Shown here piece after piece: positions 15,067-61,864 of a stretch of 64,000 nt of DNA. The notes under the pieces were generated by a model. It made no database searches, was not told where the DNA came from, and saw only the letters and a program-made list of their open reading frames with translations. How positions within the stretch are numbered: position 1 is the first letter of the stretch; the number at the start of each line of letters is the position of its first letter. The DNA lies in assembly GCA_003148945.1 (NCBI GenBank), contig QGGY01000010.1:95336-159335 (forward strand), read 5' to 3'. Both the position numbers and the translations under genes were made by a program. Source of the DNA: Murimonas intestini. GTDB taxonomy: Bacteria; Bacillota; Clostridia; Lachnospirales; Lachnospiraceae.

Positions 15067-15130
15067 AAACTTCTGACATATGTATCAAATTTTAATTAAA
15101 GTTTGATACTATTTGTCAGAAGTTTTTTTT
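15067..15130 (+). terminator. long intrinsic terminator
   Basis: AAACTTCTGACA (15067-15078) pairs with TGTCAGAAGTTT (15114-15125). An inner GTATCAAA/TTTGATAC stem extends it, and eight T follow. It isolates the recombinase and polysaccharide region from upstream metabolism genes. Confidence 0.88.
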
Positions 15131-15157
15131 GACCAAAAACCTCATTCCCTATAGTAT
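15129..15157 (+). promoter_or_regulatory. candidate promoter of the recombinase gene
   Basis: TTGACC (15129-15134), 17 bases, TAGTAT (15152-15157). It starts in the T-run of the preceding terminator and lies about 40 nt before the recombinase start. Confidence 0.5.
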
Positions 15158-15195
15158 GTGAATATTTTGCAACATTATTTTATGGAGGAGAATTG

Positions 15196-16041
15196 ATGAT
15201 GGAGAAAGAAAAATCATATGCATCTCACTTGGAAGGATTTAAAGACAGCCTGCACAGAAATGAGAAATCACAGGCAACTATTAAAAAATATACAAGAGAA
15301 ATTGGACAACTTATTGATTATCTGAACGGCAGGAAAATCACAAAAGATCTGCTGATTGATTACAGGGAGTATCTTCAGAACCTGAATCTTGTCCAGACAG
15401 TGAATGGAAAGCTGTCAGCTATTAATGCGTTTTTAGAATATATGGGGCTGCAGTGCTGCAAATTAAAATTATTCCGGGTCCAGCGGGCGGCATTTGTAGA
15501 TGAGAAGAGAGAATTGACGGAGCAGGAGTATAAACGTTTGCTGGATGCCGCTAAGAAGCAGGACGATGACCGCCTGTACCATCTGATGCTGACTATCGCG
15601 GGAACAGGCATACGTATCAGCGAGCTGAAGTTTATTACCATAGATGCCCTTGAAAAGGGGCAGGCCAAAATATATCTGAAAGGGAAAGGCAGGACTATCC
15701 TTCTGCAAAAAAGCCTCAGGACACGGCTGATGAAATATGTAAAAGGGCAGGGGATCAGGGAGGGATATGTTTTTCAGACAAAGAGCGGAAAGCCTCTCGA
15801 CAGGTCTAATATATGTCATGACATGAAGAAACTCTGTAAGCTGGCAGAAGTGGAACCAGGCAAAGTATTTCCCCACAACTTCCGCCATTTGTTTGCCCGT
15901 ACTTTTTATGCCATCGAGAAAAACCTGGCTCATCTGGCAGATATTCTGGGTCACAGCAGCATAGAGACAACGCGTATTTATGTGGCGGCCAGCGCCAAAG
16001 CATATGAAGAAACTTTAGATAAGATGTGTCTGCTTTTATAA
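15196..16041 (+). CDS. tyrosine recombinase, predicted invertase of the adjacent promoter
   Basis: A 281-residue site-specific recombinase of the XerC/D-like tyrosine family. The N-terminal SAM-like core-binding domain covers about residues 5-90, the catalytic domain about 105-275. Catalytic residues are R140 (GTGIRISEL), a lysine in the LKGKGR hairpin (161-166), H227 and R230 (HNFRH), H253 (LGHSS) and the nucleophile Y262 (TTRIYVAA), so it is complete. GGAGGAG stands before ATGATG; 15196 or 15199 could be the start. The stop is only 4 nt from one of two inverted 24-bp repeats with a recombinase-site layout that bound a promoter segment. This makes a local inversion switch far more likely than a phage integrase role: no phage genes adjoin it. 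Confidence 0.9.
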   Translation: MMEKEKSYASHLEGFKDSLHRNEKSQATIKKYTREIGQLIDYLNGRKITKDLLIDYREYLQNLNLVQTVNGKLSAINAFLEYMGLQCCKLKLFRVQRAAFVDEKRELTEQEYKRLLDAAKKQDDDRLYHLMLTIAGTGIRISELKFITIDALEKGQAKIYLKGKGRTILLQKSLRTRLMKYVKGQGIREGYVFQTKSGKPLDRSNICHDMKKLCKLAEVEPGKVFPHNFRHLFARTFYAIEKNLAHLADILGHSSIETTRIYVAASAKAYEETLDKMCLLL

Positions 16042-16045
16042 AAAA

Positions 16046-16069
16046 ACCACAGAATTCTCATTCTGTGGT
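16046..16069 (+). repeat. left inverted repeat / recombination site IRL
   Basis: The arm ACCACAGAAT, spacer TCTC and arm ATTCTGTGGT form two inverted recombinase-binding arms around an asymmetric 4-bp spacer. On the minus strand this hairpin is followed at once by seven T (16046-16040), so it is also an intrinsic terminator for transcripts running leftwards from the segment. Confidence 0.85.
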
Positions 16070-16102
16070 AGTTCCGCATCAATTAAATGGATACATAAAA
16101 TC

Positions 16103-16131
16103 ATTATAAAAGATTTTAAGATAGAATACAA
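16103..16131 (-). promoter_or_regulatory. promoter inside invertible segment, facing left (OFF)
   Basis: On the minus strand TTGTAT (16131-16126), a 17-bp spacer and a perfect TATAAT (16108-16103). A second candidate upstream on the same strand is TTGGCA with TATAAT at 15 bp. Transcripts would meet the IRL hairpin and T7 tract within about 60 nt. Confidence 0.75.
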
Positions 16132-16233
16132 GAATTATTTGTCGAAAAATTATATTTTCATAACAGTTTTGCCAAGATTATGTCATAAATACTTTTCCAG
16201 AAGATCCCAATCCGGTCTGAATATAGCACGAGC

Positions 16234-16265
16234 AGGCCTATAGAAATTTTTATTTCTGTAGGCCT
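16234..16265 (+). terminator. hairpin shielding the operon in the OFF orientation
   Basis: AGGCCTATAGAAAT (16234-16247) pairs with ATTTCTGTAGGCCT (16252-16265) around TTTT, with one G-T wobble. The T-tract after it (TTTC) is weak. In the present orientation it lies between the recombinase and the operon and would reduce readthrough; after inversion it would lie upstream of the promoter. Confidence 0.6.
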
Positions 16266-16326
16266 TTCTGCAGATACGCAAAAATGACATTTATAACCGG
16301 CTCTCAGGAAAATAATTCAGGCGCTT

Positions 16327-16350
16327 ACCACAGAATGAGAATTATGTGGT
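16327..16350 (-). repeat. right inverted repeat / recombination site IRR
   Basis: The arm ACCACAGAAT, spacer GAGA and arm ATTATGTGGT. The spacer is the reverse complement of that of IRL, so the two sites are in inverted orientation and recombination would invert, not delete. Unlike IRL it has no T-tract next to it, so a rightward transcript would pass. Confidence 0.85.
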
Positions 16351-16408
16351 AGGGCAGATAAAACAAGGTTCCAGATAAGCTGCAGACGCTGTAGGGAGAT
16401 GATATATA

Positions 16409-17962
16409 ATGACAGGATTAAAGGTAAGAAGAAAAGATATTTATACTGCCCTGCTCACTGTTTTAGAAGCAGTTAAAAATAAACGCCGCAGCCTGAACAA
16501 AAGGATGGAGCAGCATTATTCTCCGGTACGGCTCGCATTTGCGTCGGCTGTAGTATGCATGCTGATCATGGTGCTTATGCTCTTTATTTCACCGTATCTG
16601 GGAGTTGCCAACGACAGCATGGCAAATCAGAAGATGAAGGGGTTTGGCCTGGATTACCTTGAGAAAGATACAGCACGGGAAGACAGCTTTCAGTCAAATG
16701 AATATTTTATTAAAACTTATGAATCCGTACATGCGGACGGGCAGGAATTTACAGTACATACATTATTTGTAACAGCTGCCAAAGCTGTTGATTCTTTTTT
16801 TACAGGAGACAATCTTTTTGATATCCGCTTTTTAGGCGCTCTTTATGGGATATGCTGGCTGCCGGGAGTATTTTTGCTTATAAAGTCAGCCCTGGAGAGG
16901 GTGAAGTACTTTTCTGAGGGAGTGGTTCTCTCAGTAGCCGGAGTACTAATATTTGCGGATGTAAGTTATCTGACATATTTCAATTCTCTATATACAGATG
17001 CGTTGATTTATATATGCATTCTGTATGCTGCAGGCGCTTCACTGGCCCTGCATAAAAACAGCAGATGGAGTCCTGCGTACATATTGATATTGACAATCTC
17101 AGGGACTGTCTTTTGCTTCATCAGCAGAAGATGCTTCCTGGCAGGAATACTTTTAGCTTTCTTTTGTATCCTTCAGATCAGAGTTTTTCAAGAATACCGT
17201 TTTAAGAAGATGCTCATCATGGCGGCAGCCGTCCTTTTAGCAGGTTCAGTTGTGAGTTTTTTTCAGTGTACGGAAGAATTTGACGAAACTGGCAAATTCC
17301 ATGCCATGACAAGAGGAGTTCTGCTCCAGTCCCCCAACCCTGTGGAAACGCTGGACAGTTTTGGGATAGATGCTTCGTATGCTGTTCTGGCTGACTGCTC
17401 CCTGTATGATTATTATCCTGTGTCAGAGATAGAGAATCCGCTGTTGCATGAGGAATTTATGGATAAATATACTACGGGAGAGATTGCGCTATATTACATT
17501 AAGCACCCCGGTGCCATGCTTTCCATGTGGGATCTGGGCGTTAAATCTGCCTTTAACCTTCGCAGGAGTTACTGCGGCAACTATGAGAGCAGTACAGGAA
17601 TGCCTGCTATGGGAAAAAGTATTTTCTGGTCGGCATGGAGCATCTTCAAGGAGAGATCCGCGCCAAAGACTATAGGTTATCTGGCCTTGCTTGTTGTCGT
17701 ATTTTCTGCAATGTCGGGGAGAAAAGTATTTAATAAAAGAGTAGTCAGGAGATGGGACTATGTCTATTTTACAGTAATGGTTATCTTTTTATTGATTGGA
17801 GTAGTGGACATCACTTATGTAATGTTAAAGAGTGGTGACACGCAGCTGGTACAGTTTAATATGGTCATGGGAGTGAGCATGGACATTTTATTTTACTATG
17901 TACTGGCTGAAATCCTGCACAAATTAAATATACTGGAGGCCAGAAATGAAGAAAAAAGATGA
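16409..17962 (+). CDS. GT-C-like polytopic membrane protein, first gene of polysaccharide operon
   Basis: A 517-residue membrane protein with about 10-11 membrane segments and a long loop after the first. I do not recognise a named gene. It has the look of a GT-C glycosyltransferase that uses a lipid-phosphate sugar. It is homologous to each half of the 1046-residue protein at 31509: shared signatures are YFNSLYTDALIY (compare FFNSLYSTGTMI and WFNSLFGEGCIF) and the loop NPVETLDSFGIDASY (compare DPAGDLKDFGLDEDY and DPVGDMEELGIDPRM). The start is an ATG with AGGGAG about 10 nt before, about 60 nt after IRR, so it is the first gene controlled by the invertible promoter. It overlaps the next gene by 17 nt. 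Confidence 0.72.
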   Translation: MTGLKVRRKDIYTALLTVLEAVKNKRRSLNKRMEQHYSPVRLAFASAVVCMLIMVLMLFISPYLGVANDSMANQKMKGFGLDYLEKDTAREDSFQSNEYFIKTYESVHADGQEFTVHTLFVTAAKAVDSFFTGDNLFDIRFLGALYGICWLPGVFLLIKSALERVKYFSEGVVLSVAGVLIFADVSYLTYFNSLYTDALIYICILYAAGASLALHKNSRWSPAYILILTISGTVFCFISRRCFLAGILLAFFCILQIRVFQEYRFKKMLIMAAAVLLAGSVVSFFQCTEEFDETGKFHAMTRGVLLQSPNPVETLDSFGIDASYAVLADCSLYDYYPVSEIENPLLHEEFMDKYTTGEIALYYIKHPGAMLSMWDLGVKSAFNLRRSYCGNYESSTGMPAMGKSIFWSAWSIFKERSAPKTIGYLALLVVVFSAMSGRKVFNKRVVRRWDYVYFTVMVIFLLIGVVDITYVMLKSGDTQLVQFNMVMGVSMDILFYYVLAEILHKLNILEARNEEKR

Positions 17963-18839
17963 AAATCAGGCAAATTTGATCATCAGGACAAAACAGGCGG
18001 AATCAGTGCTCCAGGATGTGGGCCTGCTGGTATTTCTGGGAGGAATACTGGCCGGAGCGCTTGTGATCGCCGCATCTGAAGGAGATGCCAGGATAGAAAA
18101 TGTGGTGATGTTCTTTGTGCTGGGAGCGGGCATCCTTCTGGCATCTTATAAAGCCAGGTACATAGCTGTCGTGCTGGGATCTGTACAGACTTTATTTTAT
18201 ACAGTCTACAAAATTTATCAGGCTGTTGCAAACGGTGTGGAGATTACATGGATGTCATATATATGGCTGGTACTTCCGCTTTTATGCATTGCCGCCATGC
18301 TGGTGTTTATGCAGACAACTTATAAGACTGAGGTAATGACGGAAATGCTGGAGGAGCAGCTCAGAAATATGGTCCTGGTGGACGTTGTGACAGGGCTGTA
18401 TAACCTGAAAAGTATGTACATGGATTTGGAAAGACAGATGGCTTACAGCAGAAGGAATCAGCTTAAGCTGTCCCTGATGATCGTGGAGCTGCGGTATGTC
18501 CAGGAACTGCGGTCTATATTAAATGCCGGACAATTTGATGAACTGAAACGGAGGATGGCGGAGGCAATAGAAGATTCCGTCAGGCTGGAAGACCGTCTGT
18601 ATGCCATTGATGCTTCCGGCTCCATCGGGATCATCTGTACATGTGACAGGGGCGGCACTGAAATTATGAAAAGCAGGATATTGAAGAAGATGGGAGACAG
18701 GGAAACTTTTGAAGATATTCTGGACAGGGCGATCAAGGTGGAAATTAAGACAGGGTGTTTTGAATATGACGAAGAGAAGGTATCTAATGCGATTGAATTT
18801 AAGCAGAAGGCAGAAAATGAACTGCAGTACGATGTTTAA
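17946..18839 (+). CDS. membrane protein with degenerate GGDEF domain, predicted c-di-GMP receptor (YdaK/PssE-like)
   Basis: A 297-residue protein with four membrane helices (about 23-43, 53-69, 72-92, 103-122) and a cytoplasmic GGDEF-type domain (about 140-260). The start of the domain is canonical (VDVVTGLYNLKSMYMDLERQ), but the active-site GGDEF is replaced by DASGS (222-226), so it cannot make c-di-GMP. The inhibitory-site motif RxxD is kept as R213-L-E-D216 at the normal distance before it. Bacillus YdaK and Listeria PssE have the same design, sit in equivalent operons, and bind c-di-GMP to activate the synthase. ATG at 17946 has GGAGG before it and overlaps the preceding gene. Role as receptor is inference from these features. 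Confidence 0.82.
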   Translation: MKKKDENQANLIIRTKQAESVLQDVGLLVFLGGILAGALVIAASEGDARIENVVMFFVLGAGILLASYKARYIAVVLGSVQTLFYTVYKIYQAVANGVEITWMSYIWLVLPLLCIAAMLVFMQTTYKTEVMTEMLEEQLRNMVLVDVVTGLYNLKSMYMDLERQMAYSRRNQLKLSLMIVELRYVQELRSILNAGQFDELKRRMAEAIEDSVRLEDRLYAIDASGSIGIICTCDRGGTEIMKSRILKKMGDRETFEDILDRAIKVEIKTGCFEYDEEKVSNAIEFKQKAENELQYDV

Positions 18840-20391
18840 GAGGTTACCTGTACTGGCGGTGCTGCTGTGGCTGATATCAGCTGTGCTGGTACAGGCAGAG
18901 GAGGAGCGGGAGTATCTGCCGGCCGGTGAAGCTGAGATACTTCTTGTGCATAATGAATCCCCTTCAGATGATGAAGCGGAAGACATTGAATATATCAGCA
19001 TGCTAGCCAATGCATTGAACAGGAGCCTTGATTTTGGAACACCAGAGCAGTGTGCGGATATTGTCTCCAAATACAGTTATATCATCTGCTATGGTCTGGA
19101 TGAGGTTCCCGGGAAATTTATGGAAGAGTTAGGGGACTATGATGGCAGTCTGATGGTACTGGGCAGCGCCTTCATGGAAAAATATCTGACAGAGACAGGA
19201 CAGGCAGCGTTTTGCGCAGGCAGGGAGACTCAGGAAAAGGGAAAGCTGGAATACTGCTTCTCCGAAGAGAACAGATTTGAAGAGCTTGTGGAGATCAGGG
19301 GCATGAGAAAATTTTTGGAAGAAGGCTACACAAATGGTGAGATTACAGCAGGAAATAAGTCCTACCCATTTTGTTCCCAGGTGGGAAATGTAAGGTTTAT
19401 ACCTGTCACTGATTTTTCAGGAAGTCTTGCCAGGGCGGCCCTTATGCAGGAAATCGTACAGTGGATGTGGCCCTATCTGGATTCTCCGCCGGATTATGCC
19501 CAGTATTTTGTACTTGACAAGGTTTATCCGTTTATGAGTGCAGAAAAATTAAAGGAGAGGGTTGATATCCTGATTGAGTCGGGCATACCTTTTGTGATTT
19601 CTGTTATGCCGGTCTTGCAGAATACGGAATTTCCCTCCATGAAGCAATTCTGCCAGGTGCTGAGCTATGCCCAGGCAAACGGCGGAGCAGTTATCTTAAA
19701 TGCGCCTGTGATACATAAAGCAGATACAGATATTGATGAACTTTATGAAAAGCTCACTGATATGACTGTGGCATATACGGATTATGGAGTATATCCTCTT
19801 GGGATTGAAGTACCTTTAAGCTGGACAAATGATGAGACATATCTGAAAGTCCTGCAGAGATACAGGACGGTATTTGTCTGTGATGACGGCAGCAGCAGCG
19901 GATTTGACCTGGATTCCCATAAGAATTCTCTTTATTACAATTATCACCAGCTGGTACTGCCTCTGATCGGGCTGGACAAGACTGGGACTTCCTATCTAAA
20001 ATGTTACTCTTCTGCCCTGTATCTGGATTCCTGTGAAGAGACAGGGGTCCTGGAAGAAAAAATAAAAAACTGCAGGGAATCTTCAGTACCGTTTAAAAAT
20101 CTGTGGGATATGAACCACAGTGTATGGGCGAATGATTTTTGGATGAATTATGAAGACCGTATCCTGAGCATCAATGGAAAGGAGGCTGTCATTGAATTTC
20201 AGCCGGAGGCATTTGATGAGGATTTTGATTATGGAAGGAATATCATACAGAGGATAACAGTCAGCCTTCAGAACCAGAATAAGATCCTGATGGTTTTAGT
20301 CGCGGCAATAGTAGTGATATTTGTATCATTTATTATATATGCAAGAAAGAGGAACAGAAGGAATTTTTTCTTTGATGATAAGAGAGAGTAG
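18817..20391 (+). CDS. secreted/membrane DUF2334-like protein (YdaL-like)
   Basis: A protein of about 524 residues with an N-terminal signal or anchor (MFKRLPVLAVLLWLISAVLV) and a C-terminal membrane helix near 488-506 followed by a basic tail (ARKRNRRN). The extracytoplasmic part resembles the DUF2334 / deacetylase-like barrel of Bacillus YdaL (YFVLDKVYPFMSAEKLKERV, FVISVMPVL). The expected metal-binding DD is not obvious: the motif here is LDKVYP, so catalysis is doubtful. A longer frame opens inside the GGDEF gene; the ATG at 18817 has AGAAGG 6 nt before it and is preferred, overlapping the previous gene by 23 nt. It probably helps assemble or modify the polymer at the outer face. Confidence 0.7.
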   Translation: MNCSTMFKRLPVLAVLLWLISAVLVQAEEEREYLPAGEAEILLVHNESPSDDEAEDIEYISMLANALNRSLDFGTPEQCADIVSKYSYIICYGLDEVPGKFMEELGDYDGSLMVLGSAFMEKYLTETGQAAFCAGRETQEKGKLEYCFSEENRFEELVEIRGMRKFLEEGYTNGEITAGNKSYPFCSQVGNVRFIPVTDFSGSLARAALMQEIVQWMWPYLDSPPDYAQYFVLDKVYPFMSAEKLKERVDILIESGIPFVISVMPVLQNTEFPSMKQFCQVLSYAQANGGAVILNAPVIHKADTDIDELYEKLTDMTVAYTDYGVYPLGIEVPLSWTNDETYLKVLQRYRTVFVCDDGSSSGFDLDSHKNSLYYNYHQLVLPLIGLDKTGTSYLKCYSSALYLDSCEETGVLEEKIKNCRESSVPFKNLWDMNHSVWANDFWMNYEDRILSINGKEAVIEFQPEAFDEDFDYGRNIIQRITVSLQNQNKILMVLVAAIVVIFVSFIIYARKRNRRNFFFDDKRE

Positions 20392-20399
20392 GGAAGGAT

Positions 20400-21737
20400 A
20401 TGTCATTTATAGATTTATTATCACTTTTTGCAATTATTGCGATCTGGCTCTTAATGATCATGAATGTGATCCTGTCAGTAGGAGGCTTTATCTACTATAT
20501 GCAGGTAGGAAAAGGCGACGGCAGGATACCCCTGGAAAAATATCCAATGGTAAGCGTCCTTGTTCCTGCCCACAATGAGAGTATTGTCATTATGCGAACA
20601 GTCAGATCCCTGCTGAGATTTACTTATCCGAAAGAGCTTTATGAGATCATTGTGATCAATGATAATTCAAATGATAATACGTCTGAAATGCTTAAAGGGC
20701 TTCAGAGGGAATTTCCGGGGCATAAGCTGATCGTTATCAACACAGGCCCTGAGGTGGGAGGAACAGGTAAATCAAATGCGCTGAACATTGGGTTTTCCAT
20801 GGCAAGAGGTGAGGTGATCGCAATATATGATGCCGATAACACGCCGGAACCAGATGCATTGACAATATTGGTGGAAAACCTGATGTCTGATGATAAGCTG
20901 GGGGCTGTCATAGGAAAATTCAGGACCAGGAATAAATATGCATCACTTCTCAGCCGTTTTGTGAATATTGAGACACTGGCATATCAGTGCATGAATCAGG
21001 CGGGCAGGTATTTTTTCTTTAAGCTTTGTACGATACCCGGTACGAATTATGTAATACGCAGGAGCATTATTGAAGAAATCGGAGGCTGGGACACCAAGGC
21101 GCTTTCGGAAGATACGGAGATCAGCTTCCGTCTGTACAGGATGGGATACTACATTAAGCAGATGCCGCTGGCGGTCACATGGGAGCAGGAACCTCATCTG
21201 ATGAAAGTTTGGTTCAAACAGAGGACAAGATGGGCCAAAGGCAATATCTACGTGCTGCTGAAAAATTTCAGATATGGCTTTGACAAAACTGCCGGCCCCA
21301 TGAGACTTGATGTCTTCTATTACACGATCGTATATGTACTGATGCTGTCTTCACTGATCATATCAGACATTATATTTTTCAGCGGCATACTGGGGTTTGT
21401 CCATATTACGCTGGGAGGATTTTCCTCTTTACTGTGGGGGATGGCTATCCTTGTTTTTGTAGTAAATATTATGCTCACCCTTGTAACAGAAAAAAATGAA
21501 TTTTCACTGGAGTCGGTGATCCTGTCATTTTTAATGCTTTTTACATATGCAAAGCTTTGGGTATTTGTAGTGCTCAAGGCGGTCTGGCTGAGTATCACAG
21601 ATCAGGTATTCCATAAAGAAGTGATGTGGGACAAGACAGTGAGGTATGTGGAGATGGCAGCGTCAAAGGAAGATGACCAGGACATGGAAGATTTTTTGGA
21701 TAAGAAATCAAGGAGGAAGAAAAATGGCAAGAAGTAA
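20400..21737 (+). CDS. processive GT2 polysaccharide synthase (BcsA/YdaM/PssC-like)
   Basis: A 445-residue inner-membrane family 2 glycosyltransferase, the polymerase of the operon. An N-terminal membrane helix (about 7-33) precedes a GT-A domain with N87-D88, the metal-binding DAD (144-146), the catalytic ED (237-238) and QRTRW (274-278), the hallmark of processive synthases. Four C-terminal membrane segments follow. It has no PilZ domain, so c-di-GMP must act through another subunit, fitting the degenerate GGDEF protein two genes upstream. In Listeria the homologous PssC makes a ManNAc polymer, and a UDP-ManNAc-forming epimerase lies at the end of this operon. Start ATG behind GGGAAGG. It overlaps the BcsB-like gene by 14 nt. 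Confidence 0.9.
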   Translation: MSFIDLLSLFAIIAIWLLMIMNVILSVGGFIYYMQVGKGDGRIPLEKYPMVSVLVPAHNESIVIMRTVRSLLRFTYPKELYEIIVINDNSNDNTSEMLKGLQREFPGHKLIVINTGPEVGGTGKSNALNIGFSMARGEVIAIYDADNTPEPDALTILVENLMSDDKLGAVIGKFRTRNKYASLLSRFVNIETLAYQCMNQAGRYFFFKLCTIPGTNYVIRRSIIEEIGGWDTKALSEDTEISFRLYRMGYYIKQMPLAVTWEQEPHLMKVWFKQRTRWAKGNIYVLLKNFRYGFDKTAGPMRLDVFYYTIVYVLMLSSLIISDIIFFSGILGFVHITLGGFSSLLWGMAILVFVVNIMLTLVTEKNEFSLESVILSFLMLFTYAKLWVFVVLKAVWLSITDQVFHKEVMWDKTVRYVEMAASKEDDQDMEDFLDKKSRRKKNGKK

Positions 21738-23931
21738 AAGCGGTTTCGCCATAGCAGCAGTGCTTTTCCTTTTATCAGTAATACTGGTATCGGGAAGAGA
21801 TGTATATGCGGCAGCCCAGGATACGCCCACAAAGGAAGAGGCGCTGGGGGATATTATGGATTCAGATCCGGAGGATGCTTTAGAGGCGAACACTAAGGAA
21901 CCCGATGTGAGCGCTGAAAACCATAAGGATTTTGAATACAGCGATGATATTGTTCTGAGCGGTATATTTCAGACGAACACTTATTATTTCCAGGTCCCGG
22001 ATTACTGGGACAGCGAATACGCATATGCCAGGATACAGGTAGAACTTAGCCAGATGATACAGGACGTCCCGGCTTCCCTGACGTTTATGGTCAACAATGT
22101 CCCTGTCACTTCTTATAAAATGGATTACCAAAATGGGAAGACACAGACGCTGTATGTGGAGATCCCCATTGAAATGATAAAGGAAGGCTATAACAGCTTC
22201 GATGTGACAGGGTATGCCAGGATCTATGATGAGGAAGGATGTATTGATGATTTTTCAGGGGCTAACTGGATAAGCATCCGCAAGGAATCTTTTATTCAGG
22301 TAGGATATAGCTTAAAGGATCATGATCAGATGATATCTTACTATCCGTACCCGTTTATATCTACAGTTGATGAGTCGGGAAGTTTGGCATATATTGCCGT
22401 ATCTGACGCAAAAGATGAGAAAGAGCTGGAAGCGGCGCTGATGGTGAGGGCCGGTCTGGGAAGCAGGACTGATATGGAGGATGATATTTCACTCGTCACT
22501 TATTCTTCGCTTCCGTGGGATGAGGGAAATAAAATCATCATATCACTTTTTGACAGCCTGGACGGGGAACTGAAGCAGGCTGTGCAGGAAGGGCTGAATG
22601 GCAGAGATCTGAAAGAGCAGGCGATGGTGAAATTCATGGCGGATAAAAACGGCAATCCGCTTCTACTCATCACATCGGAAGACGGTGACTGCCTTGTGGA
22701 GGCAGTCACCATGCTGCTGGATGAAGAACGTGTGTCACAGGAAAAAACAAGCCAGACATTTGTTAAAAAGGGGAGTGCGCAGATCATCAGGGAATCTTCG
22801 GCAAAGAGTGATATGATAGCCGGCAGGTATACGCTGGATGCACTGACTGAAGAAGGATTGAATTTTATAGGGCCATTTCATCAGACAGCTGATATTTATC
22901 TGCCGTTTTCAGGCGGATATGTGCTGGCGGATTCAGGAAAAGTAGTGCTGAAATTCCGCTATAGTGAGAATCTGGATTTCCGCCGTTCTATGGTGACTGT
23001 TTATTGGGGAGACGTGCCGGTTGCCAGCAAGAAACTGACGCAAGAGAACGCGGACGGCGATGAACTTTCCTTTACTATGCCCGAAGATGTGATTGGCACA
23101 TATGCCGGCAAGATATCAGTGGCATTTGATCTGGAACTGCCGGAACTGTTCTGTACTCCAAGGATGGACCAGATGCCGTGGGCGTATGTGACAGAGGATT
23201 CTGTTTTCTATCTTCCTGTCGGTGTGGAAAGTAATTATTCATTATCCACCAGGCCGTATCCTTTTGAGATATCCTCTATGTTTAATGATCTTCTTGTTGT
23301 GATCCCGGATGAGATAACAGAGGAGGAATTAGATACATTAGGCCATATCATAGCTCTGTATGGGGAAAGCATCACTCCATATGGGGATATACAGGTAAAA
23401 AGGGCAGGGGAATTAGGTACCGGGGAGGAGAAATCCCATAACATCATTACAGTTGGAAATTACAATGATAACAGTCTTATACAGGAACTCAACGGTCAGC
23501 TGTATTTTAAATACAATGAAGATGGGACAGCTTTCCAAAGTAATGGCCGGCTGGTGCTTTCAGATGATTATGCCGGGAAGATAGCTTCTCTGCAGCTGCT
23601 CTATTCACCGTATGCGGACAACAAGGCCATACTTGTGGCAGGGGCATTAAATGATGAGACCTTGTCAAATATAAAATCCTTTATCAGTAAAGATGAAAAT
23701 GTGTGGAAGCTGGAAAAGGATACAGTGCTTATAGATGATGAACTGGAAATCAAGACATTTGAAATGGCAGCTGTTGAAAAGAACAGAAAGCAGCCTGTTC
23801 TGAAGACGATTTTTGAGAATAACAGGGATTCTGTGATTTTCGCTGTTGCAGCCACATCTGTTATGCTTCTGCTTCTGCTGGCAGTAGTCTTAATACTCAT
23901 ACGTATATACTGGAGGCAGAGAAAGAAATAG
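21724..23931 (+). CDS. BcsB-like synthase partner (YdaN-like)
   Basis: A 735-residue secreted, C-terminally anchored protein of the cellulose-synthase-B family. Signal sequence MARSKSGFAIAAVLFLLSVI, then repeated BcsB carbohydrate-binding and flavodoxin-like modules (VPDYWDSEYAYARIQVELS; FTMPEDVIGTYAGKISVAFD), and a C-terminal helix near 710-730 with a basic tail. In cellulose synthase the C-terminal helix of BcsB docks on BcsA, so this should form a complex with the synthase encoded just before it and guide the chain outside. The ATG at 21724 is preceded by AGGAGGAAGAAA; a longer frame inside the synthase gene is ignored. The overlap suggests translational coupling of the two subunits. Confidence 0.85.
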   Translation: MARSKSGFAIAAVLFLLSVILVSGRDVYAAAQDTPTKEEALGDIMDSDPEDALEANTKEPDVSAENHKDFEYSDDIVLSGIFQTNTYYFQVPDYWDSEYAYARIQVELSQMIQDVPASLTFMVNNVPVTSYKMDYQNGKTQTLYVEIPIEMIKEGYNSFDVTGYARIYDEEGCIDDFSGANWISIRKESFIQVGYSLKDHDQMISYYPYPFISTVDESGSLAYIAVSDAKDEKELEAALMVRAGLGSRTDMEDDISLVTYSSLPWDEGNKIIISLFDSLDGELKQAVQEGLNGRDLKEQAMVKFMADKNGNPLLLITSEDGDCLVEAVTMLLDEERVSQEKTSQTFVKKGSAQIIRESSAKSDMIAGRYTLDALTEEGLNFIGPFHQTADIYLPFSGGYVLADSGKVVLKFRYSENLDFRRSMVTVYWGDVPVASKKLTQENADGDELSFTMPEDVIGTYAGKISVAFDLELPELFCTPRMDQMPWAYVTEDSVFYLPVGVESNYSLSTRPYPFEISSMFNDLLVVIPDEITEEELDTLGHIIALYGESITPYGDIQVKRAGELGTGEEKSHNIITVGNYNDNSLIQELNGQLYFKYNEDGTAFQSNGRLVLSDDYAGKIASLQLLYSPYADNKAILVAGALNDETLSNIKSFISKDENVWKLEKDTVLIDDELEIKTFEMAAVEKNRKQPVLKTIFENNRDSVIFAVAATSVMLLLLLAVVLILIRIYWRQRKK

Positions 23932-23969
23932 CATACACCAAGCTAAAAGTAAGAAAGGTCAGGTTGCAT

Positions 23970-25781
23970 ATGGAACCCAGAAAAAATGTATTCAGCTATT
24001 TTGTGATCATCCTTTATATAACGGCGGTATTATACACCTTGATCAGCGGAGTGACTGCGCTGGGGGAAGGGCAGGAATATCCCTATCTGCTCCAGGGGGT
24101 ATTTCTTGTGATGCTTCTGGCAGTGTGGCTGGCCCTGAACGGGATCACGGGGATGCTGGCCAGATTTGATATAGGTAACCGCCTGAAAGCCAGGGAGCAG
24201 GTTCTTAAATATGCGGAGGCGGCTGTAGTAATTCTTGTGCTGGCGGCGGGGTTTATCATCCGTATAAGATATCTGCAGTCAATGCCTATGGAGCCGGAAT
24301 CAGATTATAAGACTTATTATGAGATTGCTGATTTGATAAACAGAGGGACTTTGTTAAAGGAAGGGCCGGGATACTGTGACTATATAGCTATGTTTCCACA
24401 TGTGTTCGGCTATCCGTATGTGCTGGCAGTTTTATTCAGGATATTCGGGACAAGTGTACAGACCGCCCAGTATTTTAATGTGGTTCTGGCCATGGGTACT
24501 GTATTTCTGGCATACAGGACAGGAAAAGCTGCGGGAGGAAGGATATGCGGTTTGTCTGCCCTTTTCCTGACAGCATTCTGGCCGTCTCAGATCCTTTACA
24601 TCAATATGGTTGCAAGTGAATATTTATTTTCATTTTTGCTCATGCTGTGTCTTTATCTTTTTGTGAAAACAATAAAAGAATATCCGCCTGATACAAAGAA
24701 GCCCGTGAGAGGCGTACTCCTGCACTTTGCAATTGGGGTATTGCTGGCTGTGACGGCAGCGGTCCGCCCCATGGCGCTGATCCTTCTGATAACGATCGTG
24801 ATCTGCATACTTCCGCAGAAAATGCGCCTTCCGGTAAAATTGCCCAGCGATCAGCCACTGTCACTTCGGATACTGGGAAAAGGGTGGATGAGATGCCTTG
24901 TTATTGTTATTACATATTTCTGTGTCTCTAATTTCTTTTCCATGGGTATTTCTTATACCATAGATCAGAAGACCGCCTCCGGGACGTCCTCCTTTGGCTA
25001 TAACCTCCTGGTCGGATTGAATGAAGAGTCATATGGAGGCTGGAACCAGGAAGATGCTGATTATCTGTATGGCGCCATGGAACAGACGGGCAGCGCCACC
25101 CAGGCCCATATAGCCTGCCGGGACCTGGCTCTGGAAAGGCTTAAAAACCCAAAGGGAATATTTAACCTTTTCGTACATAAATTCCAGGCATTGTGGGCTA
25201 ATGATGACTATGGGAGCACCTGGAATATTTTATTTATGGACCAGCAGGGAACACTCACCCCTGCCCGGGAAAAATTTCTCTATGGAGTCCGTGATATAAG
25301 CAACTTATTTTATTTAACATTAGTGGCGCTGGCCGGGGTAGAAGGGATATTTTTGTGGAAGCGGGGAAACGGCATCACTTTTCCGTTCATCCTGATCTTT
25401 GTGGGAACTGCGGGGATGCATCTGTTTGTTGAGAGCCAGAACCGTTATCACTATCACGCGCTGTTTATGTTTGTGCTGCTGGCAGGATTTACGATAAAAG
25501 AAGTCTATGAAATGAACCGCTGCAAAGTGCTGGCTTCCCGGGAAGAAAAGGAACGCTGTCTTCTGGAAAAGCAGGAAGATGAGAAAAAGATGGAAGTTCT
25601 CTTAAATGAGGAAGAGGAATTGAAAAAGCGCAGGGAAGAAGCTATGAGATGCGGTTTTGATATGATGGATGCATTGAAAAAGGGATATGTCACTGTCAGC
25701 GTATCTGAGGCATATGAAAAGGATGGGACGCCTGACCCGTCAGAGCCGGATAAGGAAAAGGAAGATGGACAAAAAGGTTAG
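23970..25781 (+). CDS. GT39/GT-C-type membrane glycosyltransferase
   Basis: A protein of about 603 residues with roughly 11 membrane helices. After the second or third helix it has an acidic motif (MEPESDYKTYYEIA) where GT39/PMT-type GT-C enzymes carry the catalytic Asp, followed by FGYPYVLAVLFRIFG, also typical. Such enzymes move a sugar from polyprenyl phosphate to an acceptor outside the membrane. The C-terminal 100 residues form a charged cytoplasmic coiled coil (CLLEKQEDEKKMEVLLNEEE). A TTG six bases upstream could also be the start. The lipid-linked sugar donor could be supplied by the GtrB-like enzyme at 35751. It overlaps the next gene by 17 nt. Confidence 0.78.
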   Translation: MEPRKNVFSYFVIILYITAVLYTLISGVTALGEGQEYPYLLQGVFLVMLLAVWLALNGITGMLARFDIGNRLKAREQVLKYAEAAVVILVLAAGFIIRIRYLQSMPMEPESDYKTYYEIADLINRGTLLKEGPGYCDYIAMFPHVFGYPYVLAVLFRIFGTSVQTAQYFNVVLAMGTVFLAYRTGKAAGGRICGLSALFLTAFWPSQILYINMVASEYLFSFLLMLCLYLFVKTIKEYPPDTKKPVRGVLLHFAIGVLLAVTAAVRPMALILLITIVICILPQKMRLPVKLPSDQPLSLRILGKGWMRCLVIVITYFCVSNFFSMGISYTIDQKTASGTSSFGYNLLVGLNEESYGGWNQEDADYLYGAMEQTGSATQAHIACRDLALERLKNPKGIFNLFVHKFQALWANDDYGSTWNILFMDQQGTLTPAREKFLYGVRDISNLFYLTLVALAGVEGIFLWKRGNGITFPFILIFVGTAGMHLFVESQNRYHYHALFMFVLLAGFTIKEVYEMNRCKVLASREEKERCLLEKQEDEKKMEVLLNEEEELKKRREEAMRCGFDMMDALKKGYVTVSVSEAYEKDGTPDPSEPDKEKEDGQKG

Positions 25782-27402
25782 ATCAGCGGAAAAAATATGT
25801 ATAGCAGCCATTATTGTTTTAGCAGTTATTGCGCTTGCATGTATTGCCATTTTACTTACAGGCAGAGAAGAACAGCCCACAGAGACGGAGAAAACAGTAC
25901 AGAAAGAGACAGAAGGGGAAAAGAAACTGACAGAGGAGAATGATTTTCTGCCTTCTGGTGTACTGTACGGGGAAAGATTGCCGGTCACTGAATTCACAGA
26001 TGGGACGGGAGAAAAGAAAGAGCTGTCAGAATACCAGGGGAAAATGCTTGTTATAGCTTTCTGGGGGAGCTGGTGCAAATATTGTGAGCAGTTCCTGGAG
26101 CATTCTGAAGAATTCAGGGAACTGCTTGAGGAGCGAAAAGATACAAATATGGTATTGATCGATAAACTGGACCAGGATAAAGGTGAGAGCAGAGAAAAAG
26201 TCCGGGCCCTGCTGAGTGAGAAAAAGGTTGGGCTTGAGTGTCTGTATGACGAAGGGCTGAAAGCTTATAAGGCATATGGAGTTAAAAGAATTCCCACTGT
26301 GATCGTGCTGGATGATGAGGGTATCGTGAGATATGCAGCAGCAGATGTGCCAGAGAGCAGGGAAGCTCTGGATTCAGTACTGGATTATGTAAAATATGGG
26401 GGGAGTGAAGCAGCAGAAAAGTTTATAGCCAGCCAATTGTCCGGGAGCGAAGGCGGAATCTATACAAATTACAAGGGAAAATCAGGTACTCACCCCACAG
26501 GACATGATGTCCTGAGTGAATCCCAGGGGCTGATGATGGAATATGCTGTCTTAGCGGATGATCAGGGAGCTTTTGACAGGGCGTATGATTTTCTGAAAGC
26601 AAATATGTATGAACAGGGGATATTTTCGTGGTATGTGACTGCAGATGGAAAAAAGGCAGGAGCGAATGCGCTGCTGGATGATCTGAGGATCTGCAGGACA
26701 CTGTGCATGGCAGAAGAGCAGTGGGGAGGCTACATCAAAGAGGCAGAAGAGCTGGCGGATGCCATACTTAAATACAATGTGTACGGGGACAGCATGAGCA
26801 GTTTTTATGATTTTTCCCAGGAAAGCCCGGGGAGTGTTATCTCCCTGTGTTATGGGGAATTGGATGCTCTGGGGAGGCTTCAGGAGCAGAATAATAAATG
26901 GGGGGAGCTTAAGGATAGGATGGCTGCTATTGTGCAGGACGGATATATCGGTGATGGATTTCCTCTGTATTTTTCCAGCTATGACTATGACAAAAAGAAA
27001 TACAGCCAGGACAGCATAAATACAGCTGAGGCACTGATGACCCTGTATCATCTGGCAAAAGCCGGGCTTTTAAAGGAGACTTCGGAGGAATGGCTCCTGG
27101 AACAGCTGGAAGGAGACGGGCTGGCTGCCAGATACAATGTGGATGGTACAGTGGTCCCGGGATATGACTATGAAACGACAGCTGTCTACGCAATTGCAGG
27201 GCTGATTGGATATGAAAGCGGGAATGCCGGGATATATACAAGAGCGCTGCAGAAAATAGAGCAGAACCGGGTATGGGATACAGGAAGCAGTTTTTATGGA
27301 AGCTTTATGAACCAGGAAGCCGGTGACGATGTTATCGCATTTGACCAGTTAATGCCATTGATTTTATATGGATATTCTAAAGACGTATTATTCGGAAGCT
27401 AA
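25765..27402 (+). CDS. thioredoxin-GH8 fusion protein (YdaJ/PssZ-related hydrolase)
   Basis: A 545-residue protein with an N-terminal membrane anchor (about 11-31), a TlpA-like thioredoxin domain (about 62-210) with active site W103-C-K-Y-C107 and cis-proline loop RIPT, then a GH8-like (alpha/alpha)6 domain (about 225-545). The GH8 acid motif is SESQGLMMEY with E252 (canonical SEGQGYGM), and NALLDDLRI (about 301-309) matches the family's NATDADLDIA with D306. Bacillus YdaJ and Listeria PssZ are GH8 enzymes tied to the same kind of operon, but without a thioredoxin domain as far as I know. The ATG at 25765 follows AAGGAAAAGGA. It probably trims or releases the polymer outside the cell; the redox domain's role is unknown. 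Confidence 0.8.
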   Translation: MDKKVRSAEKICIAAIIVLAVIALACIAILLTGREEQPTETEKTVQKETEGEKKLTEENDFLPSGVLYGERLPVTEFTDGTGEKKELSEYQGKMLVIAFWGSWCKYCEQFLEHSEEFRELLEERKDTNMVLIDKLDQDKGESREKVRALLSEKKVGLECLYDEGLKAYKAYGVKRIPTVIVLDDEGIVRYAAADVPESREALDSVLDYVKYGGSEAAEKFIASQLSGSEGGIYTNYKGKSGTHPTGHDVLSESQGLMMEYAVLADDQGAFDRAYDFLKANMYEQGIFSWYVTADGKKAGANALLDDLRICRTLCMAEEQWGGYIKEAEELADAILKYNVYGDSMSSFYDFSQESPGSVISLCYGELDALGRLQEQNNKWGELKDRMAAIVQDGYIGDGFPLYFSSYDYDKKKYSQDSINTAEALMTLYHLAKAGLLKETSEEWLLEQLEGDGLAARYNVDGTVVPGYDYETTAVYAIAGLIGYESGNAGIYTRALQKIEQNRVWDTGSSFYGSFMNQEAGDDVIAFDQLMPLILYGYSKDVLFGS

Positions 27403-27413
27403 GGAGGGGGCAT

Positions 27414-28907
27414 ATGTTATTCAATTCCCTGGATTTTTTGATATTTTTTCCTGTTGTTACTTTGATCTACTTTTTGATACCGCATAAAATACGGTATATC
27501 TGGCTTCTGATCTGCAGCTATTATTTTTATATGTGCTGGAATGCGGCTTATGCTTTACTGTTATTTACATCTACAGCCATAACATATGCCAGCGGCCTGG
27601 CTATACAGGCAGCCGGAAAACATGAGGAAAATGATCCGGAACGGCTGAAAAGCAAAGGGTTTGTGGCAATTTCCTTTATATTAAATCTTACAATCTTAAT
27701 ATTTTTTAAGTACACAGGCTTTATTATTGATAATTTAAATCTGCTGTTTGGCAGGTTCGGTATGGAACTTGTTATTCCGAAGTTCGATATCCTTCTTCCG
27801 GTGGGAATCTCCTTTTATATTTTTCAGGCATTGAGCTATACGGTGGATGCCTACAGGGGAGATGTGAAGGTAGAGAGGAATTTCCTTAAATATGCAGTTT
27901 TTGTCTCTTTTTTCCCTCAGCTTGTTGCAGGACCGATTGAGAGGTCATCACGTCTGCTGAACCAGTTTAATGACAGGCACAAGTTTGATTATGACCGCGT
28001 CTGCAAGGGCCTGATGATGATGGTATGGGGATTCTTTCAGAAAATGGTGATCGCGGACAGGGTGGCAGTGTTTGTGAACCAGATATTCAACTATTACAAT
28101 TATTATTCAGGACTGGAGATTTTCATAGGAATGCTGTTTTTTGCAGTCCAGATATACTGCGATTTTGCAGGTTACTCTAATATTGCATTGGGCGCAGCGC
28201 AGGTGATGGGATTTGATTTGATGCAGAATTTTACACAGCCGTATCTGGCCCGTTCAGTAGCTGAATTCTGGAAGCGATGGCACATTTCCCTCACCAGCTG
28301 GTTCAGGGATTATCTCTACATTCCTTTGGGGGGAAACAGAAAAGGAAAGTGGATAAAATACAGAAATATTATGATCATATTTTTGACCAGCGGGCTGTGG
28401 CATGGGGCCAGCTGGACATATGTGATCTGGGGAGGGCTGAATGGAGCGTTTCAGATAGTTGGAGCCCAGACACTGAATCTGAGGAAGAGGATAAAAAAAG
28501 CAGCAGGCATACGGGAAGAAAGCTGGAGCTATAAAATGCTGGCCACAGTAATCACATTTCTGCTTGTGGATTTTACATGGATATTCTTCCGGGCAGATAA
28601 TATAGAGGCGGCATTTTCACTGATCAGGCAGATGTTTTCCGGGTTCAGGCCATGGATCTTGATCGACGGGAGCCTGTATGCAATGGGACTGTCATTCATA
28701 GATTTCTGGATTGGGATGATCGCCATAGCTGTACTGCTGGCTGTTGATATATTGCACAGCAGGAATATACATATACGTGAATGGATCGTAAAACAGAACC
28801 TGTGGTTCCGCTGGGGCATTTATCTGCTGGCTGTGTATTCCATTTTGATTTTTGGGTATTACGGTCCAAATTTTGATGCCACACAGTTTATTTATTTCCA
28901 GTTTTAA
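27414..28907 (+). CDS. MBOAT O-acyltransferase (AlgI/DltB-like)
   Basis: A 497-residue membrane-bound O-acyltransferase with about 11 helices. The family signature is clear: LPVGISFYIFQALSYTVD, FFPQLVAGPIER, and the catalytic His H330 in GLWHGASWTYVIWG. These proteins pass an acyl group, usually acetyl, across the membrane to an extracytoplasmic acceptor, working with an SGNH-type partner; such a protein is encoded 11 nt downstream. The pair is therefore likely to O-acetylate the exopolysaccharide. The start is an ATG behind AGGAGGGGG. Confidence 0.92.
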   Translation: MLFNSLDFLIFFPVVTLIYFLIPHKIRYIWLLICSYYFYMCWNAAYALLLFTSTAITYASGLAIQAAGKHEENDPERLKSKGFVAISFILNLTILIFFKYTGFIIDNLNLLFGRFGMELVIPKFDILLPVGISFYIFQALSYTVDAYRGDVKVERNFLKYAVFVSFFPQLVAGPIERSSRLLNQFNDRHKFDYDRVCKGLMMMVWGFFQKMVIADRVAVFVNQIFNYYNYYSGLEIFIGMLFFAVQIYCDFAGYSNIALGAAQVMGFDLMQNFTQPYLARSVAEFWKRWHISLTSWFRDYLYIPLGGNRKGKWIKYRNIMIIFLTSGLWHGASWTYVIWGGLNGAFQIVGAQTLNLRKRIKKAAGIREESWSYKMLATVITFLLVDFTWIFFRADNIEAAFSLIRQMFSGFRPWILIDGSLYAMGLSFIDFWIGMIAIAVLLAVDILHSRNIHIREWIVKQNLWFRWGIYLLAVYSILIFGYYGPNFDATQFIYFQF

Positions 28908-28918
28908 GAGGATGCCAT

Positions 28919-31471: not shown

Positions 31472-31508
31472 GAGAAATCAGGCTGAAAGAACCCGGGGGG
31501 ATATATGG

Positions 31509-34500: not shown

Positions 34501-34649
34501 CGGACAATCAGAAGCAGATGTTTGGATTTATGGTATGCCACGATTTGCTCACAGTGATCACAGTGGTTCAATTGATAAGCTGGCTGAGAAGGGGGAAAAA
34601 GGATGAAAAAAGTAGCAGTAGTATTCGGGACACGGCCGGAAGCAATTAA
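31509..34649 (+). CDS. tandem-duplicated GT-C-like membrane protein
   Basis: A 1046-residue polytopic protein made of two homologous halves (about 20-500 and 560-1040). The halves share FFNSLYSTGTMI / WFNSLFGEGCIF, LIYPVALIRLVTEPF / LIYPVAIVRGICYIL, and DPAGDLKDFGLDEDYISDIG / DPVGDMEELGIDPRMAADIG. Each half also resembles the single-domain 517-residue protein that opens the operon. After the first helix of each half a conserved loop (GTVDSGKYENVMAKAGL, CVNNGDFGRMMEQTGL) carries an Asp that could be the GT-C catalytic residue. A fused two-active-site glycosyltransferase or flippase-linked transferase is the likely role; no gene name is recognised. The start at 31509 follows GGGGGG. Its end overlaps the epimerase gene by 47 nt. 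Confidence 0.72.
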   Translation: MKKVLIFLKKILDNDARAMGLLFGILAFVVTVSGLASSPRLGTVDSGKYENVMAKAGLVYTPGDQAEESTLTYTRVIENYGYGHFSYAKLLAPSGCGSLIYPVALIRLVTEPFGLDFSTIYLYMIYAAAAAYSVYALVRGTAYLAGRAAWLPGALLLLLLSDRNLTVFFNSLYSTGTMIIGFLLASSMLLRALTYRKGRGGYALFPLAGALVFLINASPVMVVFIPFAIAAAGVFVCEQKNFSRKVICGVILAGILVTGISSGVRQYQSDPDMNSETSAYHAAFQGFLEASADPAGDLKDFGLDEDYISDIGNSYYQDAGTYVHNPRDEEEAEMLFSKLNQKTIFTWYLNHPGRILKTLICQEEPFNSFETEWVLGVGQFSSQQDKVTKSWSLADTLLKMLFPENCAMLLILFLLFAAGAVLIFIKGIRNKKRGAWVLPAVILTWALGAASSLPLYIMAEGRASMVFMRVFAVFVIALQAAGVLTCLYIGAVKASGWFRRIYSELPEQDSGLLISGEITGDENENVFLYSWIAGKAGKLYKLVMKAAGNRKYVMTAVSAAAVCMTAVILLADPRAGCVNNGDFGRMMEQTGLIWTGDIFYDTNAQLGNRVIEEYAYRSAFDFRTLTLIKPTYSLIYPVAIVRGICYILQQPFSTYYVSIVMSIILLLCILSIVRDMFPYLKKYTLLFGIGMCVVFLCESYLVWFNSLFGEGCIFLGVFMVAACCVHLAVIPQGKGMLHVFLLLLACRFLLCAKAQMLVALPVLGILLIVFALYHRPLKLKKLIPYTILFMILFAGMTYEGIRIYQDNGNISERQTVWQSVFYGALMVSDDPVGDMEELGIDPRMAADIGKDAYQPDADYVISPNSPEADEAFYDHVNTFTMVKYYLKRPLQLLKMLDYSAAESRELYNGFRAYKGQNYGGEHDPVDRLGLWLYWRPFFSFGAFWEYAAVYGVLLWYCISCIRKRDNPAQKKLLCVVYMGIMLIGCLQYPLSVIGNGFADNQKQMFGFMVCHDLLTVITVVQLISWLRRGKKDEKSSSSIRDTAGSN

Positions 34650-35718: not shown

Positions 35719-35750
35719 AGGACCTGGTTTAATAGAAAGGGGCAGGGCAT

Positions 35751-36761: not shown

Positions 36762-36829
36762 ACACTAATAAAATGTGGATTACTTCCGGGGCAGGTGAAA
36801 AGTATGTGGATAAGGGAGGAAGAAAAAGA

Positions 36830-54524: not shown

Positions 54525-54525
54525 A

Positions 54526-55332: not shown

Positions 55333-55351
55333 GTAATCACCTTCTCTTTCT

Positions 55352-61843: not shown

Positions 61844-61864
61844 CAAAACTATATTATTGGGAAG

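What the first reader, a model, noticed from the sequence alone, without database searches (positions are those of the whole stretch)
15196..16408. Recombinase-linked invertible promoter in front of a polysaccharide operon
Seen: a complete tyrosine recombinase ends 4 nt before a 24-bp repeat that recurs inverted 281 bp later. Each repeat is two 10-bp inverted arms around a 4-bp spacer, and the spacers (TCTC and GAGA) are reverse complements, which defines inverted crossover sites. Between them the best promoter (TTGTAT-17-TATAAT) points away from the operon. Known: tyrosine recombinases flip such promoters in other gut bacteria to phase-vary surface polysaccharides. Inference: this is an ON/OFF switch for the 20-kb operon at 16409-36719, assembled in the OFF state.
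Basis: partly seen in the sequence, partly recalled or inferred. Interest (0 to 1): 0.95.

Follow-up and report, generated by a model that had tools for sequence, protein, structure and literature searches.

The report
Self-flipping promoter with dead-end site
Beside a recombinase gene in this Lachnospiraceae bacterium lies a 305-base DNA segment framed by mirror-image sites that likely flips a promoter between a predicted surface-polysaccharide operon (ON) and a predicted transcription stop (OFF, as assembled); related copies are found in both orientations, but flipping in this species is untested.

Summary
Observation confirmed. A tyrosine recombinase (15196-16041) ends 4 nt before a 24-bp site (16046-16069) that returns inverted (23/24) at 16327-16350: 0 of 2000 shuffles gave such a pair, and it is the window's only one.

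Interpretation supported by relatives. In a family survey, 85 of 104 usable copies carry an inverted pair just after the recombinase, against 1 of 99 upstream flanks and 0 of 520 shuffles. One ortholog pair with 3609/3609 identical flanks has the segment inverted (101/101); three diverged paralog pairs do too. Promoter-like sequences face either way (66 OFF, 13 ON, 21 unclear of 100); the window reads OFF.

Refinements. The exchange core is probably 6 bp, not 4: positions 10-15 never differ within 92 site pairs. The recombinase-side site is followed leftward by a T-tract, a predicted intrinsic terminator facing the OFF promoter (39 of 63 clusters, against 3-5 of 63 for the other three flanks).

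Flipping here, promoter activity and termination are unmeasured; the window's promoter is modest alone. Such invertons of Clostridia were reported in 2025; the dual-use site I did not find in my paper searches.

The parts
15070..15130 (+). Terminator-like hairpin with eight T between the pfkB-type gene and the recombinase (predicted)
   Evidence: read directly from the sequence (letters); inverted repeats I1 and I3 overlap it
15129..15157 (+). Promoter-like TTGACC-17-TAGTAT in front of the recombinase, outside the segment (predicted, 9 of 12)
   Evidence: promoter-like sites in that region number 6 against 3.9 expected, so weak
15196..16041 (+). Tyrosine recombinase, 281 aa (TTG start possible at 15193)
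16040..16045 (.). Six A outside the left site = T-tract when read leftward; with the site it forms a predicted intrinsic terminator (minus strand 16069-16036)
   Evidence: -14.3 kcal/mol; listed by the scanner; conserved on this flank
16046..16069 (.). Left (recombinase-side) crossover site, perfect palindromic arms, predicted core TTCTCA
16046..16350 (.). Predicted invertible segment, 305 bp
16103..16131 (-). Promoter-like TTGTAT-17-TATAAT, pointing at the left site (OFF)
   Evidence: modest score by itself
16234..16265 (.). Strong hairpin inside the segment (-23.5 kcal/mol in its context); only a weak T-tract follows, so its terminator role here is a guess
   Evidence: not called as a terminator by my rule or by the scanner
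16327..16350 (.). Right (operon-side) crossover site, one mismatch to the left site, no T-tract on its outer side
16409..36719 (+). Predicted exopolysaccharide operon of 12 ORFs: WsfD, GGDEF-domain protein, DUF2334, PgaC-like GT2, BcsB-like, PMT-like, thioredoxin/GH8, MBOAT, two large proteins, UDP-GlcNAc 2-epimerase, PgfS-like GT2

Best explanation
The tyrosine recombinase encoded at 15196-16041 likely inverts the 305-bp segment 16046-16350 at its two inverted sites, so that the promoter-like sequence inside would drive the predicted exopolysaccharide operon at 16409 in one orientation and, as assembled, faces the other way, toward a predicted terminator formed by the recombinase-side site itself. 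Shown by sequence: recombinase, sites, promoter-like sequence facing the recombinase, hairpin plus T-tract, the same layout in relatives, and inverted homologous segments in four pairs of relatives. Inferred: that this recombinase acts on these sites; exchange within the 6-bp core; that the OFF transcript ends after some 57 nt near 16040; that in ON the promoter would sit at about 16265-16293 and read through the right site, which lacks a T-tract, with a leader of about 109 nt (coordinates, start site assumed 7 nt past the -10); and that the result is ON/OFF phase variation of a surface polysaccharide.
For: Site pair beyond chance. Same pair after 20 of 23 named orthologs and 85 of 104 usable survey copies, against 1 of 99 upstream flanks and 0 of 520 shuffles. 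L007 and L008: 3609/3609 identical up to and including the left site, then 101/101 to the reverse complement and 28/101 to the forward segment; L007 keeps the flank's outer arm and position 9 of L008's left site, which places the exchange inward of position 9. Three paralog pairs in single genomes (L110/L147, L135/L148, L152/L163) also inverted, at 73-80% identity; the first two carry the promoter-like sequence OFF/ON as expected. Core positions 10-15: 0 mismatches in 92 pairs. Contig ends: 21 of 126 within 450 nt downstream against 4 of 126 upstream, p 0.0009, 14 against 4 genomes. Promoter-like sequence of 100 segments: 66 OFF, 13 ON, 21 unclear; -10 ends 30-64 nt from the site it faces in 62 of 66 and 11 of 13. 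T-tract: at least 5 T of 8 in 39 of 63 clusters on the recombinase-side outer flank, against 5, 3 and 3 of 63 on the others.
Against: No inversion was seen in this species: none of the other 97 genomes holds this segment, and the window's contig spans it in one orientation. The window's promoter scores below the 95th percentile of its shuffles. 19 of 104 survey copies showed no pair by my rule. L007's contig ends 101 nt into the segment, and the three other inverted pairs are diverged paralogs. The promoter matrix is approximate and recalled; 21 of 100 segments are unclear. The pair finder favours well-matched sites (exact 9-base seed), which helps the core result. 24 of 63 clusters lack the T-tract; the tract might serve recombinase binding instead. 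The paralog switch at C2 in this genome has no T-tract there.
Confidence: 0.85

Rival explanations
1. Frozen relic: the layout is inherited, but in this species the segment no longer flips and the operon is locked OFF or read from elsewhere.
For: No inverted copy of this very segment is available; the right site has one arm mismatch; the promoter is modest.
Against: The recombinase is intact with the expected residues; the core is identical in both sites; position-7 mismatches occur in 3 of 92 related pairs.
Confidence: 0.1
2. The segment flips, but the T-tract is not a terminator: it is part of the recombinase's binding or bending site, and the OFF promoter makes antisense RNA against the recombinase.
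For: 24 of 63 clusters lack the tract, and termination is not measured; A-tracts bend DNA (recalled).
Against: The tract is T-rich on one strand, starts at the hairpin and decays over about 10 bases, as in intrinsic terminators; it is missing on the other site's outer flank, where a binding role would also be expected; an independent scanner lists it.
Confidence: 0.25
3. The repeats are only two terminator hairpins bounding a gene gap, with no recombination.
For: Each site is itself a hairpin.
Against: Inverted segments between matching flanks in relatives; core matched within a locus but variable between loci; only the left site has a T-tract.
Confidence: 0.02
4. The segment is flipped by another recombinase of the genome (22 PF00589 matches in it), with the neighbour as a bystander.
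For: 22 matches to PF00589 in the genome; in C. difficile the unlinked RecV flips several switches (passages of PMC8844915 and PMC2784873).
Against: The pair sits directly after the orthologous recombinase in most relatives; the two nearest paralogs (42% identity) each lie beside their own pair, with different arms and core.
Confidence: 0.05

Closest known systems
Inverton group 139 with invertase group 35 of gut Clostridia (Jin et al. 2025, PMC11892184; outline, abstract, sections 6-8 and passages seen)
   Same: Invertons next to a tyrosine-type recombinase in Clostridia (32 of 33 invertons); two examples span about 205-228 bp between repeats; orientation shifts seen in cultures
   Different: Whether the repeats match this site motif could not be checked (supplement not available to me); the parts I read do not mention a terminator at the crossover site
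E. coli fimS switch with FimB/FimE (recalled, and a passage in PMC2784873)
   Same: Short segment with a promoter between inverted repeats, tyrosine recombinase genes in the same locus, surface structure as output
   Different: One recombinase here, not two; the recombinase's stop codon lies 4 nt from the site; the site itself is a predicted intrinsic terminator, whereas the passage describes a Rho-dependent terminator after fimE
C. difficile cwpV switch and RecV (PMC2784873; passages seen)
   Same: Tyrosine recombinase, short inverted repeats, intrinsic termination tied to the OFF state
   Different: There the promoter lies outside the segment and the recombinase is not beside it; here the promoter-like sequence is inside and termination would act away from the operon
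Mpi-controlled capsule promoters of Bacteroides fragilis (recalled; titles in the reference list of PMC11892184)
   Same: Invertible promoters in front of surface polysaccharide operons
   Different: One global recombinase for many loci there (recalled to be of the serine type); here a tyrosine recombinase beside its own switch
Clostridial cellulose synthase operon ccsZABHI (PMC7710045; passages seen)
   Same: Synthase-type exopolysaccharide operon with a hydrolase and an MBOAT acyltransferase
   Different: Here BcsB-like, GH8-type, WsfD, GGDEF-domain, DUF2334 and epimerase genes, and no GH5 match in the genes scanned

Membership tests
Promoter inverton linked to its recombinase | Inverted repeat pair bounding a short segment | tested here: met
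   conserved in relatives
Promoter inverton linked to its recombinase | Site-specific recombinase gene next to the segment | tested here: met
Promoter inverton linked to its recombinase | Promoter inside the segment | tested here: inconclusive
   Promoter-like sequences only; modest in the window, stronger across relatives
Promoter inverton linked to its recombinase | Both orientations occur | tested here: inconclusive
   Met in relatives; not seen in this species
Promoter inverton linked to its recombinase | Orientation changes transcription of the neighbour | not testable with these tools
   No expression data
Tyrosine recombinase superfamily | Phage_integrase domain with catalytic R, K, H, R, H and Y | tested here: met
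   (catalytic roles recalled)
Xer housekeeping recombinase (XerA/C/D/S) | Score over the NCBIfam cut-off | tested here: not met
   XerA 124.6 against 220, XerC 96.4 against 335.15, XerD 94.6 against 329.6 bits
Inverton group 139 / invertase group 35 (PMC11892184) | Same repeat motif | not testable with these tools
cwpV-type terminator switch | Promoter outside the segment, terminator formed in the OFF leader | tested here: inconclusive
   Only promoter-like sequences inside the segment were found near the operon; the 58 bases between right site and start codon show none by eye; transcription starts not mapped
ccs cellulose operon | GH5 hydrolase CcsZ with CcsA, CcsB and an MBOAT/DHHW pair | tested here: not met
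   GH8, BcsB and MBOAT matches, no GH5 match among the operon proteins scanned

The most novel reading that the evidence does not exclude
This is one of a large Lachnospiraceae family of one-recombinase-one-switch cassettes in which the crossover site beside the recombinase does two jobs: it is the recombination site and, through a T-tract kept outside the segment, an intrinsic terminator. The promoter is flipped between an open road into a surface operon and a built-in dead end that spares the recombinase gene from antisense transcription and releases a short OFF-state RNA.
Probability: 0.55. Interest if true: 0.65.

Novelty: new variant of a known kind. Interest (0 to 1): 0.56.

Why it matters
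Switchable surface polysaccharides affect how gut bacteria meet phages, antibodies and neighbours (general knowledge). The survey gives a simple rule for finding these switches in Lachnospiraceae and reading their state from an assembly: recombinase, site, segment of 145-603 nt between repeats (150-335 nt in 79 of 85 cases), site, target. The recombinase occurs in 70 of 397 genomes searched, 126 copies, a lower bound since at most 6 candidates a genome were scored. If the crossover site is also a terminator, it would explain how a promoter can be pointed at the recombinase gene without antisense transcription, and it is easy to test with a reporter.

Tried and rejected
Rejected or not supported. 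Chance repeat. Core as a barcode that keeps the switches of one genome apart: 41 of 43 within-genome pairs differ in the 8-bp core, but sharing (2 of 43) is not rarer than between genomes (22 of 2883). A hairpin inside the segment that terminates in one direction only: across relatives terminator-like hairpins read about equally both ways (OFF segments 46 and 44 of 66; shuffles 12 of 100, one strand); the window's own hairpin was not called. Known RNA family in the window: none at the gathering cut-offs. Relatives in viral contigs: none confirmed. The operon depending on the switch: 3 of the 396 other genomes hold its first five genes in the same order, with no recombinase match better than E 0.07 in the fetched 12-18 kb and no long repeat pair in the 900 nt upstream. 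Single site-like matches elsewhere in the genome are about as many as in the reversed-pattern control.

Rows dropped. Of 126 surveyed copies 22 had under 660 nt downstream and were left out of the repeat test; 19 of the remaining 104 showed no pair. The 100 segments are these 85 plus 15 of the 23 loci; left out were L006 and L011 (same loci as two survey copies), L014-L016 (nearly identical to L022), L007 (ends inside the segment), L017 and L020 (no pair found). The 100 are not independent; the 63 clusters are. The site profile uses 92 of 100. One search also lists the same locus fetched twice and close relatives.

From memory: the promoter matrix (approximate), the 1.5-bit ON/OFF margin (my choice), catalytic residue roles, Xer core size.

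Papers. Searches listed nothing whose title or abstract start describes a crossover site that doubles as an intrinsic terminator in a promoter inverton; I opened five papers in part (PMC11892184, PMC2784873, PMC7710045, PMC5903667, PMC8844915), none whole. Subscription papers are mostly absent from the library.

Odds: confidence in the best explanation is set at 0.85, after listing again what speaks against it (modest promoter, no inversion seen in this species).

Full report
OBSERVATION. The recombinase gene 15196-16041 ends 4 nt before a perfectly palindromic 24-mer at 16046-16069; its reverse complement with one change lies at 16327-16350. None of 2000 single-base shuffles of some 1.5 kb around it gave so good a pair, and it is the only one within 600 nt in the 64 kb. 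The protein matches Phage_integrase (1.3e-25), stays below the XerA/C/D cut-offs, and aligns over nearly its whole length with solved XerC-like and XerA proteins. A hairpin with eight T stands upstream (15070-15130) and a weak promoter-like pair follows (15129-15157), so the recombinase is probably a unit of its own.

FAMILY. Of 23 named relatives, 20 show a site like ACCACAGA-8-TCTGTGGT within some 25 nt of the recombinase's end and again inverted, mostly 240-291 bp on, start to start; of the other three, L007 and L020 end before a second site could be seen and L017 shows none. A survey of 397 genomes of the window's family found 70 with a match at E up to 1e-60, 126 copies, a lower bound. 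The family is Lachnospiraceae: survey contigs identical in sequence and length to named ones belong to Hungatella hathewayi and Frisingicoccus caecimuris (taxonomy). Of 104 copies with at least 660 nt downstream, 85 have an inverted pair there; the same rule gives 1 of 99 for upstream flanks and 0 of 520 for shuffled sequence. First downstream genes of named loci, where a Pfam family was found, include BspA-type leucine-rich repeats, SpaA-type and von Willebrand-type pilus proteins, a FIVAR/Rib-type protein, a sugar epimerase, a UDP-sugar dehydrogenase followed by a GT2 synthase, a GGDEF-EAL protein and one TnpB-like gene; several ORFs had no match.

INVERSION. L007 and L008 come from two metagenome bins; their recombinases are 62% identical to the window's. 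They agree over 3609 of 3609 bases through the left site; past it, L007 matches the reverse complement of L008's segment at 101 of 101 bases and the forward strand at 28 of 101. L007's contig ends there. L007's left site keeps the outer arm and position 9 of L008's left site, where L008's right site differs, so the exchange lay inward of position 9. Three pairs of paralogs within single genomes also show inverted segments, at 73-80% identity. In the other compared pairs (upstream identity at least 78%), segments were either colinear or not alignable. Contigs end within 450 nt downstream of the recombinase match in 21 of 126 copies against 4 of 126 upstream (p 0.0009; 14 against 4 genomes). That fits assemblies broken by mixed orientations, though other causes are possible.

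SITE ANATOMY. In 92 site pairs, positions 10-15 never differ between left site and mirrored right site, although positions 11-14 are among the most variable between loci (1.75-1.94 bits; 10 and 15 have 0.69 and 1.03). Positions 8, 19 and 20 also never differ but hardly vary at all. Outer arms (positions 1-9) collect 94 mismatches and inner arms (16-24) 37. The pair finder favours well-matched pairs, so this is support, not proof, for a 6-bp exchange core, the size usual for Xer-type sites (recalled).

PROMOTER. With an approximate matrix, 66 of 100 segments have the clearly better promoter-like sequence facing the recombinase, 13 facing the operon, and 21 are unclear; 45 score above 10.5, against 7% of shuffles. 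The -10 ends 30-64 nt from the site it faces in 62 of 66 and 11 of 13. The inverted paralog pairs L110/L147 and L135/L148 read OFF/ON. The window's TTGTAT-17-TATAAT fits in place and spacing but scores 10.0 against a 95th shuffle percentile of 10.9; the best sequence facing the operon scores 6.4. So the window's OFF reading rests on direction and on relatives.

TERMINATOR AT THE SITE. Read leftward, the left site is a 10-bp hairpin followed by TTTTTTATAA; it folds at -14.3 kcal/mol in its context and the scanner lists it among two terminator-like sites, where 1.1 are expected by chance. The weight comes from relatives: over 92 pairs T makes up 63-70% of bases 2-5 after the hairpin on this flank only, and in 63 clusters at 70% protein identity at least 5 T of 8 is met by 39 on this flank and by 5, 3 and 3 on the other three (Fisher 2.5e-12 against the operon-side outer flank). 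So the OFF promoter would meet a dead end beside the recombinase while the operon side stays open. 24 of 63 clusters lack the tract, the own-genome paralog at C2 among the copies without it, and a role in recombinase binding is not excluded.

TARGET. The 12 ORFs at 16409-36719 run in one direction with overlaps or gaps of at most 32 nt: WsfD, a membrane protein with a GGDEF-domain match that lacks the GGDEF letters, DUF2334, PgaC-like GT2, BcsB-like, PMT-like, thioredoxin/GH8, MBOAT, two large proteins without a strong family match, UDP-GlcNAc 2-epimerase and a PgfS-like GT2. It is predicted to make a synthase-type exopolysaccharide; the product is unknown. Terminator-like sites inside the stretch number 22 against 14.4 expected, and none lies between 36719 and the response regulator at 36773, so the true transcript ends are open. 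Three other genomes hold the first five genes in order without the switch.

OWN GENOME. Two paralogs at 42% identity have switches of their own: C13, before a 1053-aa ORF with a cadherin-like domain, and C2, before a capsule-type gene cluster, with TTGACA-17-TATTAT facing it and three sites on each side.

LITERATURE AND NOVELTY. Invertons of Clostridia tied to a tyrosine-type recombinase were reported in 2025 (group 139 with invertase group 35; PMC11892184), with orientation shifts in culture. I think it likely, but could not test, that this is the same family. The switch as such is therefore a new member of a known kind. The dual-use crossover site is the reason for rating it a variant; my searches listed no paper on it, within an open-access library only.

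Noticed in passing
L050 15887-16346 (G000:C2:187886-188345): A paralogous switch in the same genome has three crossover-like sites spaced 34 bp on each side of the segment, in mirror order, before a capsule-type gene cluster; promoter-like TTGACA-17-TATTAT faces the cluster.
   Followed up: partly
L050 and L051 (G000:C2 and G000:C13): The two paralogous switches share the same 8-bp core (ATAACAAT), so exchange between distant loci might be possible.
   Followed up: no
L014, L015, L016, L022: Switch loci from records named Diplocloster agilis, Intestinibacillus massiliensis, Oscillibacter sp. PC13 and Hungatella hathewayi are 97.7-100% identical around the recombinase: recent transfer or contaminated assemblies.
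   Followed up: no
L010 6161-7525: In Clostridium porci a TnpB-like gene (Cas12f1-like TNB domain) is the first ORF after the switch, whose promoter-like sequence at the usual place faces it.
   Followed up: no
window 17946-18839: Membrane protein with a GGDEF-domain match in which the GGDEF letters are absent; perhaps a c-di-GMP-related sensor or a degenerate domain.
   Followed up: partly
window 49209-61846, minus strand: Two very large ORFs (1771 and 2164 aa) with a 268-aa ORF between them; not examined.
   Followed up: no
L021 6112-6170: A second copy of the operon-side site lies 35 bp after the first, another multi-site switch.
   Followed up: no
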